Shown here: piece after piece, positions 13,141 to 17,869 of the stretch
Layout: each line of letters starts with the position of its first letter
Position numbering within the stretch: position 1 is the stretch's first letter
Origin: Allobosea sp. Root483D1
Lineage (GTDB): Bacteria > Pseudomonadota > Alphaproteobacteria > Rhizobiales > Beijerinckiaceae
Direction of reading: 5' to 3'
Assembly: GCF_001429505.1 (NCBI RefSeq)
Contig: NZ_LMJW01000011.1
Location: 406,344-470,343, forward strand
Length of the DNA: 64,000 nt
The notes under the pieces: generated by a model
What the model saw: only the letters and a program-made list of their open reading frames with translations
Database searches by the model: none
What the model was told of the DNA's origin: nothing
Translations under genes and position numbers: made by a program

Positions 13141-13902
13141 CTATCGCCGCAGACCCGGTGCCTCCAGCGCGAGACCCTTGGCCCGCACGGCGAGATAGAG
13201 TTCAAGCGCGAGATAATCATCGGAGCCGTAGTCGAACTGCGTCGCCCTGACCCCGAGCGAGCAAGCGCGCAGGCGCCGGTGCAGCGAGCCGAGCCCGTTC
13301 CATTCGAGCCGGTAGGCGGGATAGCCGGTGCCGACGCCATGGCTGATGGTGTCGCCGCGCAGCTTCTGGCCGACGAGGCCGTCATGGCACTGGGTGCAGG
13401 CCAGGTTGAGCTGCCCCTGCCGGCGTTCGTAGAAGGCCCTGCCGGCTTCGTAAAAGGGTCTCGCCGCGCCCTCGGCTGAGACCGATAGCGGCAGACCGCG
13501 CGAGAGCGAGGCGACATAGGCGGTGAGGCCGAGCAGTTCCTGGCTCTCATAGCCGAAGGCGGGCTGCTTCTGCCGGTCGATCCGGCACTGCTCGATGCGC
13601 CCTTCGAGATTGATCAGCTTGCCGCTGTTGGCGTCGACCTGCGGATAGCGGGCGGCCGCGCCGCGCAGGCTCTGCTTGGGGTCGGCATGGCAGGAGAGAC
13701 AGGTCGGTGTCGTACCGTCGCGGCGGCTGAACAAGTCCTCGCCCTGCTCGACCCAGAGATAGCCGGGATTGCGGCCCTGGTCTTCCTGCTGCCGCTGCAT
13801 CTGCGGCGAGAGGAAGGCGCTGCCCGGCTTGATCTCTTCGGCGAAGGCTGGACTCGCCAGCGCGAGCAGGACTGCCGCGAGCGCGCGGCCGGCAGAGGTC
13901 AT
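13141..13902 (-). CDS. soxA: SoxA, thiosulfate-oxidation c-type cytochrome
   Basis: A 253-residue periplasmic cytochrome with a signal peptide ending SPAFA-EE. It has heme-binding motifs CLSCH (68-72) and CTQCH (169-173), and Cys214 in ACSLGVRA, the SoxA signature cysteine that ligates the active-site heme and carries the persulfide. In known systems SoxAX joins thiosulfate to the SoxY cysteine oxidatively. The start at 13902 is chosen over 13956 because it begins the signal peptide and its ATG overlaps the soxZ stop (ATGA). It is the last sox gene of the run; soxB is not adjacent. Confidence 0.93.
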   Translation of the reverse strand: MTSAGRALAAVLLALASPAFAEEIKPGSAFLSPQMQRQQEDQGRNPGYLWVEQGEDLFSRRDGTTPTCLSCHADPKQSLRGAAARYPQVDANSGKLINLEGRIEQCRIDRQKQPAFGYESQELLGLTAYVASLSRGLPLSVSAEGAARPFYEAGRAFYERRQGQLNLACTQCHDGLVGQKLRGDTISHGVGTGYPAYRLEWNGLGSLHRRLRACSLGVRATQFDYGSDDYLALELYLAVRAKGLALEAPGLRR

Positions 13903-14222
13903 GTCACGACGAGACGGGCGGTGCGGGTGAAGGTCGCCCCGCCATCCTCTCGCCACTCGAAGGAGAGGTCGCCGGTCTCGACGGCGCGGGTGGTGAAGCT
14001 GACGAAGGGGTTGGCCGAGACGCCGGTGTGCATGTCGTAGCGGAAGACCGGCTCGCCGGCATAGGTCACGGTCAGCCGGTTGAGGATCTTGCGCGGCACG
14101 ACCCGCCCTTCGGAGTCGACCTGGCCGCCGCGATCCATCGGATGACGGACGAGGACGCGGATCTCGACGATCTCGCCGGCCTTGGCCTCGGCCGGCATGG
14201 TGATGCGGGCGTTGAATGCCAT
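13899..14222 (-). CDS. soxZ: SoxZ, sulfur carrier partner
   Basis: A 107-residue beta-rich protein matching SoxZ in length and in motifs (EIVEIRVLVRHPMDRGG, PRKILNRLTVTYAGEPVF and the C-terminal FTRTARL). It has no signal peptide; SoxZ is exported in complex with SoxY. SoxZ shapes the platform against which the SoxY arm moves. It lies five bases after soxY and overlaps soxA by four, indicating tight translational coupling. Confidence 0.95.
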   Translation of the reverse strand: MAFNARITMPAEAKAGEIVEIRVLVRHPMDRGGQVDSEGRVVPRKILNRLTVTYAGEPVFRYDMHTGVSANPFVSFTTRAVETGDLSFEWREDGGATFTRTARLVVT

Positions 14223-14227
14223 GGCGC

Positions 14228-17323: not shown

Positions 17324-17401
17324 GGCGTCCTCCTGATGCGGATGGCGCTGCGGCGAGGCTGTGGCGCTCGAGCCGTGCGCAGGGAAACGGGAAAGATCAG
17401 A

Positions 17402-17869
17402 TCAGCCGCGACCCATCTGGCCACTGGCGGCGACGTCCTTGATGGCGGCCTTGACGCGGTTATAGGTGCCGCAGCGGCAGATATTGGTGATCTCGGCGGC
17501 GATGTCGGCATCGCTCGGCTTGGGATTGGACTGCAGCAGTGCGGCGGCGGCCATGATCATGCCGCTCTGGCAGAAGCCGCATTGCGGTACGTCGTGTTCG
17601 ATCCAGGCCTTCTGGATCGGGTGATTGCCGTCGGGCGAGAGGCCCTCGATGGTGATGATCTTCTGCTCGGCGGTGAGGGCGCTCACCGGCATGGTGCAGG
17701 AGCGGGTGGCGACGCCGTCGATATGAACTGTGCAGGCGCCGCATTGGGCGACGCCGCAACCATATTTCGTGCCGGTCAGGCCGATCTGCTCGCGGATGAC
17801 CCAGAGCAGCGGCGTGTCGTCCTCGACTGTAACGTCAATCGTCTTGCCATTGATGCTGAGCTTAGCCAC
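17402..17869 (-). CDS. [2Fe-2S] small subunit of molybdenum hydroxylase (IorA-type)
   Basis: A 155-residue protein with a plant-type [2Fe-2S] domain (Cys38, 43, 46 and 58, KYGCGVAQCGACTVHIDG) and a helical [2Fe-2S] domain (Cys97, 100, 131 and 133, QCGFCQSGM and ICRCGTY). This is the standard electron-transfer subunit of two-subunit XO-family enzymes. It has no signal peptide, so it must be exported with the Tat-bearing large subunit. The start is GTG at 17869, with GGGAGG just upstream; longer frames are not protein-like. It is the first gene of the leftward operon. Confidence 0.92.
   Translation of the reverse strand: MAKLSINGKTIDVTVEDDTPLLWVIREQIGLTGTKYGCGVAQCGACTVHIDGVATRSCTMPVSALTAEQKIITIEGLSPDGNHPIQKAWIEHDVPQCGFCQSGMIMAAAALLQSNPKPSDADIAAEITNICRCGTYNRVKAAIKDVAASGQMGRG

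What the first reader, a model, noticed from the sequence alone, without database searches (positions are those of the whole stretch)
13141..17869. Molybdenum hydroxylase operon fused in translation to soxXYZA, without soxB or soxCD
The genes are iorA-type, iorB-type, soxX, soxY, soxZ, soxA, all leftward; from the iorB-type gene to soxA they overlap or are at most five bases apart (soxX starts inside the stop of the molybdenum subunit gene; soxZ and soxA overlap by four). The large molybdenum subunit carries a Tat leader, so all products can meet in the periplasm. Known Sox systems use SoxAX, SoxYZ, SoxB and the sulfite-oxidase-family molybdoenzyme SoxCD; here SoxB and SoxCD are missing and a molybdoenzyme of another family is present. 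One hypothesis is that a xanthine-oxidase-family enzyme acts on cargo carried by SoxYZ, or that SoxXA serves as its electron acceptor. This could be an undescribed sulfur or organosulfur oxidation system.
Basis: partly seen in the sequence, partly recalled or inferred. Interest (0 to 1): 0.78.

Follow-up and report, generated by a model that had tools for sequence, protein, structure and literature searches.

The report
SoxB-free sulfur-carrier molybdoenzyme operon
A sulfur-carrier system that usually works with two known partner enzymes is here joined to an unexpected molybdenum enzyme, and the same pairing, with an altered carrier tip, turns up in many other bacteria, which points to a separate and still unexplained oxidation pathway rather than a broken duplicate.

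Summary
The operon is real: iorA, iorB, soxX, soxY, soxZ, soxA (17869 down to 13141, minus strand). The genome also has a canonical soxXA-YZ-B-CD cluster on another contig, so 'without soxB/soxCD' holds for the operon, not the genome. It is not a degraded copy: its SoxA is far from the genome's canonical SoxA in a tree and the haem and carrier cysteines are kept. The arrangement recurs. Of 53 sampled genomes with a close IorB (58% identity or more), 44 have sox genes beside it. Of 45 genomes with a linked cluster, 24 have no SoxB match at all. In 52 of 52 linked SoxY proteins the tip is [ASGP]AC plus 2-6 residues; canonical SoxY ends GGCGG. My reading: a SoxB-independent periplasmic module in which SoxXA loads a sulfur or organosulfur substrate on SoxYZ and IorAB is the catalytic partner; the substrate is unknown, probably not thiosulfate. 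Prior art: one such cluster was reported in Starkeya novella (2013), hardly expressed there, and NCBI already names the SoxY family 'AACIE arm'. The breadth, the SoxB independence and the tip-enzyme correspondence were not found in the papers searched. Chemistry is inferred, not shown.

The parts
17402..17869 (-). iorA: small subunit with two 2Fe-2S domains, no leader of its own
   Evidence: Pfam Fer2 and Fer2_2; adjacent to iorB in 52 of 53 cluster loci, the other being cut by a contig end
15128..17323 (-). iorB: xanthine-oxidase-family molybdenum subunit with Tat leader
   Evidence: MoCoBD_1 and MoCoBD_2, TIGR01409; closest solved sequence 8gy3_C, aldehyde dehydrogenase large subunit; GEP motif near the C terminus in 53 of 53 cluster IorB; that its Glu is catalytic is recalled
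14685..15131 (-). soxX: monohaem cytochrome c
   Evidence: TIGR04485 76 bits; CxxCH and Met kept in 38 of 38 loci aligned
14228..14722 (-). soxY: sulfur carrier with altered arm, Tat-like leader by eye
   Evidence: TIGR04487 165.7 bits, TIGR04488 (GGCGG type) 90.5 bits
14231..14251 (-). codons of the SoxY arm SACIDGG
   Evidence: read; residue before the cysteine is Ala in 52 of 52 cluster loci, Gly in 7 of 7 canonical controls
13899..14222 (-). soxZ: carrier partner, no leader
   Evidence: TIGR04490 83 bits
13141..13902 (-). soxA: dihaem cytochrome c with the conserved cysteine after the second haem
   Evidence: TIGR04484 203 bits; closest PDB sequences 1h31, 2c1d; both CxxCH and the later Cys kept in 39-40 of 40 loci

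Best explanation
IorAB-SoxXYZA is a dedicated periplasmic oxidation module that does not need SoxB or SoxCD. Proposed working: SoxXA oxidatively attaches a reduced sulfur or organosulfur compound to the cysteine of the altered SoxY arm; IorAB, a periplasmic xanthine-oxidase-family hydroxylase, oxidises the organic part of that conjugate or of the compound it comes from, in the place that SoxB and SoxCD hold for GGCGG carriers; electrons pass through SoxXA (and FccAB where encoded) to cytochrome c. Shown by computation: linkage, recurrence, arm change, conserved haem and carrier residues, and no SoxB match in many host genomes. Inferred: periplasmic location, loading of the arm, IorAB acting on the cargo or its source, and the electron path. 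The substrate is unknown and probably not thiosulfate.
For: Sox genes beside a close IorB in 44 of 53 genomes. SoxX, SoxZ and SoxA in 51, 52 and 53 of 53 cluster loci, SoxB and SoxC in 0 of 53. No SoxB match in 24 of 45 cluster genomes, 21 of those 24 listed as at least 95% complete. Ala before the arm cysteine in 52 of 52 cluster SoxY; in 79 loci with a SoxY, Ala-Cys goes with IorAB and Gly-Cys with SoxB or with neither, with few exceptions. All 8 (order) and all 16 (class) genomes with a SoxY over the TIGR04487 cut-off carry this IorB. Haem and carrier residues kept. Two genomes with unlinked iorAB have Ala-Cys soxXYZA on another contig (G308, G344). Against thiosulfate as substrate: very low expression in S. 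novella, Sox2 proteins not detected; soxY2 of B. diazoefficiens not essential for thiosulfate oxidation, if soxY2 belongs to this kind of cluster.
Against: Four of 53 genomes have the enzyme without an Ala-Cys SoxY. G284, a complete single-contig genome, keeps iorAB-soxX-soxA and has no SoxY at all. G507 has iorAB-soxYZA with no soxX beside it. S. meliloti LMB1 and Methylosinus OB3b have close IorAB with other cytochromes. In S. novella the authors suggested no functional significance under the conditions tested. XO-family enzymes are known for hydroxylating carbon, not sulfur (recalled). No substrate, interaction or electron transfer has been tested.
Confidence: 0.45

Rival explanations
1. 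IorAB is an ordinary periplasmic aldehyde or N-heterocycle dehydrogenase. SoxXA (or FccA) is its cytochrome electron acceptor, and SoxYZ is retained only to remove sulfur compounds that would inhibit the enzyme.
For: Closest solved sequence is the Gluconobacter-type aldehyde dehydrogenase large subunit 8gy3_C (the organism is recalled). No FAD subunit gene is in the operon. soxX follows iorB directly. S. meliloti LMB1 has a c-type cytochrome gene just before iorA, Methylosinus OB3b a multihaem cytochrome gene. G284 keeps soxX and soxA but has no SoxY.
Against: SoxYZ with an intact arm cysteine is kept in 52 of 53 cluster loci. The arm change tracks IorAB, which a mere acceptor role of SoxXA does not explain. 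In most unlinked IorAB loci that I read no cytochrome gene lies beside it.
Confidence: 0.28
2. A second Sox set that loads extra substrates and hands them in trans to the canonical SoxB and SoxCD on contig C20.
For: This genome has SoxB and SoxC, and 21 of 45 cluster genomes have SoxB.
Against: 24 of 45 cluster genomes have no SoxB match; the arm differs from GGCGG in 52 of 52; iorAB would be unexplained.
Confidence: 0.08
3. SoxXYZA is a sulfur relay that restores the sulfido ligand of molybdenum in IorAB after export, keeping the enzyme active in the periplasm.
For: XO-family enzymes need a sulfido ligand on Mo (abstract start of PMC2997495 and PMC3877041 in the listing); SoxYZ carries sulfane sulfur (PMC5336275 passages); FccB, a sulfide dehydrogenase type, is in 28 of 53 loci.
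Against: No precedent that I found; four genomes with close IorAB lack this carrier.
Confidence: 0.07
4. A relic or hitch-hiking operon with no present function.
For: Very low expression and no detected SoxAX2 or SoxYZ2 protein in S. novella on glucose, methanol or thiosulfate.
Against: Open frames and kept residues across many families; gene order kept while flanks mostly differ; present also in three genomes of one family outside the class.
Confidence: 0.06

Closest known systems
Second sox cluster of Starkeya novella: soxX2Y2Z2A2F2 (Snov_1982-1977) with an XO-family Mo enzyme (Snov_1975/1976), PMC3797975
   Same: SoxXYZA beside an XO-family molybdenum enzyme, no SoxB or SoxCD in the cluster, in a genome that also has a full canonical sox cluster (section 13)
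   Different: It includes a flavocytochrome (SoxF2); the window operon has none. Exact gene order and the SoxY arm of S. novella were not compared here.
Canonical Sox system (soxXYZABCD), as on contig C20 of this genome
   Same: SoxXA and SoxYZ families, kept haem motifs and arm cysteine
   Different: No SoxB or SoxCD in the operon; arm SACIDGG instead of GGCGG; SoxA of a distant lineage
NCBIfam TIGR04487, SoxY-related AACIE arm protein
   Same: Best family for the window SoxY (165.7 bits)
   Different: Slightly under the cut-off of 172; the arm is SACIDGG rather than AACIE
Periplasmic cytochrome-linked aldehyde dehydrogenases and isoquinoline 1-oxidoreductase (IorAB)
   Same: Two-subunit Mo/2Fe-2S make-up, Tat leader; 8gy3_C is the closest solved sequence
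   Different: No dedicated cytochrome subunit gene; SoxXYZA instead. Substrate not known
Fused SoxYZ-like carriers near PQQ alcohol, methanol or formate dehydrogenases (TIGR04557; clades S2 and S4 of PMC11237559, section 24 part 1)
   Same: A SoxYZ-type carrier tied to an oxidoreductase of carbon compounds
   Different: Fused SoxYZ and other enzyme families there; here separate soxY and soxZ with SoxXA; the window SoxY scores only 49 bits on TIGR04557 (cut-off 140)

Membership tests
Canonical Sox thiosulfate-oxidising system | SoxXA and SoxYZ encoded | tested here: met
Canonical Sox thiosulfate-oxidising system | SoxB encoded with them | tested here: not met
   not in the operon and in 0 of 53 cluster loci; present elsewhere in this genome; no match in 24 of 45 cluster genomes
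Canonical Sox thiosulfate-oxidising system | SoxCD encoded with them | tested here: not met
   SoxC in 0 of 53 cluster loci; present on C20 of this genome; not searched genome-wide in other genomes
Canonical Sox thiosulfate-oxidising system | SoxY arm ending GGCGG | tested here: not met
   SACIDGG; Ala-Cys in 52 of 52 linked SoxY
Canonical Sox thiosulfate-oxidising system | oxidises thiosulfate | not testable with these tools
   related clusters: low expression in S. novella; soxY2 dispensable in B. diazoefficiens, link to this cluster type inferred
TIGR04487 SoxY-related AACIE arm protein | score at or above the curated cut-off | tested here: not met
   165.7 against 172 bits, yet the best-scoring family and the same arm type; 24 sampled genomes over the cut-off all have this IorB
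XO-family IorAB-type enzyme | MoCo-binding domains, two 2Fe-2S domains, Tat leader, GEP motif | tested here: met
XO-family IorAB-type enzyme | hydroxylation of an aldehyde or N-heterocycle | not testable with these tools
   no substrate evidence; closest solved sequence is an aldehyde dehydrogenase subunit
S. novella second sox cluster type | SoxXYZA with an XO-family Mo enzyme and no SoxB or SoxCD in the cluster | tested here: met
   against the text of PMC3797975
S. novella second sox cluster type | flavocytochrome (SoxF2) in the cluster | tested here: not met
   not in the window operon; FccB in 28 of 53 cluster loci

The most novel reading that the evidence does not exclude
A new kind of carrier-bound metabolism: a molybdenum hydroxylase that oxidises an organosulfur group while it is held on the SoxY arm, the arm sequence (Ala-Cys against Gly-Cys) being the address that sends a carrier to IorAB or to SoxB. 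Other, more distant IorAB lineages (IorB 28-52% identical to the window's) also sit beside SoxYZ, so the pairing would be wider than one clade.
Probability: 0.27. Interest if true: 0.87.

Novelty: new variant of a known kind. Interest (0 to 1): 0.64.

Why it matters
If right, an operon type whose one published description saw no functional significance for it under the conditions tested, and probably a carrier paralogue that is dispensable for thiosulfate oxidation, belong to a separate periplasmic pathway present in many alphaproteobacterial families and at least one family outside that class. It makes the role of sox genes in genomes without soxB directly testable, warns against scoring thiosulfate oxidation from soxXYZA genes alone, and offers a readable arm signature for which enzyme a SoxY serves.

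Tried and rejected
Degraded duplicate of the canonical cluster: rejected. Unique to this strain: rejected. A conserved extra neighbour that would name the substrate: none found. Amidohydrolases near the cluster are confined to single genus groups; a gene of the SBP56 family lies near the cluster in two loci only, L048 (partial, at the edge) and L049, and scores 99.6 against a cut-off of 650 bits for methanethiol oxidase; the downstream esterase gene was found beside the operon only in the window and the five loci L009-L013 among the loci searched with it. FccAB as an obligatory part: rejected, FccB in 28 of 53 loci. A cytochrome gene beside every unlinked IorAB: not found in most loci read. 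No structure prediction or complex modelling was run. One search used a wrong Pfam accession (NMT1, not a sox family) and served only to place the window. Paper searches: (ten, the cap), open-licence papers only; led to the Starkeya paper. Figures and supplements were not seen.

Full report
What is there. The window lies on contig C11 of a 6.61 Mb genome in 23 contigs. It is Bosea-like: the same operon with IorB 95-97% identical is in Bosea lupini (L010), Bosea sp. Tri-44 (L011) and three other loci. On the minus strand run iorA 17402-17869, iorB 15128-17323, soxX 14685-15131, soxY 14228-14722, soxZ 13899-14222 and soxA 13141-13902. 'soxB and soxCD missing' is true of the operon only: contig C20 holds soxX, soxA, soxY (GGCGG), soxZ, soxB (845 bits), soxC (638 bits), a SoxD-like cytochrome and a flavocytochrome flavoprotein (SoxD by position and Pfam cytochrome c only).

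Not a degraded copy. In a tree of 48 SoxA proteins this genome's canonical SoxA and one relative fall together behind a branch of 3.66 changes per column with support 100. The window SoxA has two CxxCH motifs and is closest to 1h31 and 2c1d among solved sequences; the canonical one here has one (translation). In 40 aligned cluster loci the first SoxA haem motif is kept in 40, the second and the later cysteine in 39 (L166 is cut by a contig end); in SoxX the haem motif and the methionine in 38 of 38; the SoxY cysteine in 39 of 39.

It recurs. IorB was searched in 219 genomes of the order, 337 of the class and 378 of the phylum; the draws overlap. In the order there is a gap: 17 genomes at 66% identity or more, then 47% and below. 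Pooling the three searches, 53 genomes have an IorB at 58% or more (17, 25 more, 11 more). In 44, sox genes lie directly beside it: 15, 19 and 9 in the three samples, and G364, where a second contig piece carries the end of iorB, fccAB and soxXYZA (L260). The other nine: in G310 and G288 the contig ends after iorAB-fccAB and another begins inside soxX or fccB and runs on as soxXYZA; G308 and G344 have Ala-Cys soxXYZA on another contig; G507 has soxYZA beside a second IorB of 50% identity; G168, G188, G698 and G801 have no Ala-Cys SoxY among the SoxY matches found. Methylobacterium sp. NMS14P, Neorhizobium galegae VafX2 and Roseomonas marmotae have the cluster on plasmids. Sixteen loci were compared for flanks: apart from the core the families shared across genera were common types such as ABC transporters, short-chain dehydrogenases and a peptidase-like protein. 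Over 53 cluster loci, in stretches of 9-20 kb, SoxA is in 53, SoxZ in 52, SoxY in 52, SoxX in 51, FccB in 28, SoxB and SoxC in none. Six of the 53 are near-identical Bosea-group loci.

It does not need SoxB. A SoxB match (TIGR04486) is missing from 4 of 15 cluster genomes in the order (limit 1e-100), 17 of 21 in the class sample (limit 1e-60) and 3 of 9 in the phylum sample (limit 1e-60): 24 of 45. Three of the 24 are listed as under 95% complete (G316, G395, G490); five are single-contig genomes (G065, G284, G419, G728, G823). G065 has one SoxY match, the one in its cluster. Equally, 21 of 45, this genome among them, do have SoxB.

The arm. In 52 of 52 cluster loci with a SoxY the residue before the arm cysteine is Ala (AAC 31, SAC 10, GAC 10, PAC 1) and 2 to 6 residues follow; 7 of 7 canonical controls end GGCGG. 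In the order search the listed SoxY matches that reach model position 146 of TIGR04487 are exactly the 15 cluster loci; the listing is cut at its weak end. The 8 (order) and 16 (class) genomes with a match over the curated cut-off all carry this IorB. In 79 loci with a SoxY 59 have Ala-Cys: 54 with IorAB in the locus, two with iorB at a contig end (L165, L260), one contig piece (L259), two in trans (L210, L212); none has SoxB. Seventeen have Gly-Cys: 12 with SoxB, four with neither, one with a distant IorAB (L257, IorB 37%). Three have no arm cysteine near the end (L213, L215, L254). These loci were partly chosen by IorB or TIGR04487 matches, so this is not an unbiased sample. A published survey of SoxY diversity deleted sequences without a 'GGC' motif (PMC11237559, passages), so this class would have been left out of it.

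Phylogeny. In a tree of 73 IorB proteins (five rows left out beforehand: L011, L012, L013, L165, L169) one clade with support 100 holds 59 rows: 47 sox-linked, 10 not linked, 2 cut by contig ends; the unlinked rows are scattered inside it (quick method). A neighbouring group with IorB about 50% identical has iorAB-soxYZA in two of three rows. More distant iorAB pairs beside SoxYZ turned up in L211, L254, L256, L257 and L261. The simplest reading is an old association with repeated losses; gains are not excluded. The window SoxA groups with L139, L061-L064, L056 and L151 (support 97), its IorB with other loci (support 85, open fork), so the two halves may have been re-paired.

How it may work. 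In the accepted model SoxAX conjugates thiosulfate to SoxYZ and SoxB and SoxCD act on the conjugate; the authors stress that none of these reactions has been directly demonstrated (PMC5336275, passages). Here both are missing and the only other enzyme always present is IorAB. IorB has a Tat leader; SoxY looks Tat-led, SoxX and SoxA Sec-led by eye. I infer that SoxXA loads the arm and that IorAB works on the cargo or on its source. XO-family enzymes hydroxylate aldehydes and heterocycles (start of abstract of PMC3877041), so an organic cargo is the natural guess. Thiosulfate is unlikely: S. novella's cluster showed very low expression, its SoxAX2 and SoxYZ2 were not detected, one flavocytochrome subunit was seen at low level, and the authors suggest no functional significance or use under other conditions (PMC3797975, section 13 and passages). 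In B. diazoefficiens only soxY1 is essential for thiosulfate oxidation, not soxY2 (PMC5748708, passages); that soxY2 lies in this kind of cluster is my inference, since the original paper was not held.

What speaks against. G284, complete on one contig, keeps iorAB-soxX-soxA with no SoxY match. G507 has no soxX beside its soxYZA; in G304 the contig ends inside soxA, so it cannot be judged. S. meliloti LMB1 and Methylosinus OB3b have a close IorAB with other cytochromes. These fit the rival in which SoxXA is only an electron acceptor, which I hold at 0.28.

Novelty. The cluster type was reported in one organism in 2013 and its SoxY family has an NCBI name, so it is a new variant of a known kind. 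The distribution, the SoxB independence and the arm-enzyme match were not found in the ten searches made, which cover open-licence papers only. A SAR324 paper proposes another SoxYZ-flavocytochrome combination without other sox genes and mentions isoquinoline 1-oxidoreductase elsewhere in its text (PMC4782131, passages), so related ideas are in print.

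Noticed in passing
L211 (G308), L254 (G295), L256 (G416), L257 (G445), L261 (G229): More distant iorAB pairs (IorB 28-52% identical to the window's) beside SoxYZ, some with SoxA or SoxX and FccAB; arms vary (ACEGLGFTY, GACIEPGE, SGCI, GACAYM, none).
   Followed up: partly
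L155 (G284:C1:2349300-2367300): iorAB-soxX-soxA in a complete genome with no SoxY match: a possible case of SoxXA serving the enzyme without a carrier.
   Followed up: partly
L214 (G160:C35), L255 (G253:C57), L265 (G374:C5): FccAB beside SoxYZ with arms GGCLT, GGCIT and GGCGAG, with no SoxB, SoxXA or IorAB found in the stretch: another small SoxYZ combination.
   Followed up: no
L049:15025-16422 and the edge of L048: A gene of the SBP56 family (selenium-binding protein, the family of methanethiol oxidase) a few kb from the cluster in two genomes of one genus.
   Followed up: partly
L138 (Neorhizobium galegae plasmid pNgVX): iorB matches in two pieces in different frames and has no listed gene, so it may be frameshifted or a pseudogene in that record, while the sox genes are annotated.
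   Followed up: no
window 12143-13078 and 9078-10337, minus strand: Putative esterase and amidohydrolase genes downstream of soxA, kept beside the operon in the Bosea-group loci; amidohydrolases of other types lie near the cluster in two other genus groups.
   Followed up: partly
L141 (Methylosinus trichosporium OB3b plasmid pOB3b1): Multihaem cytochrome, iorA, iorB, with XdhC-like and nucleotidyltransferase genes on the other strand and an arylsulfatase-annotated gene upstream; no sox genes in the stretch.
   Followed up: no
L213 (G168:C16), L215 (G167:C7): SoxY-like matches in longer proteins (272 and 289 aa) without an arm cysteine near the end, probably fused SoxYZ-like carriers; L213 has a quinoprotein-dehydrogenase-like frame nearby (by eye).
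   Followed up: no
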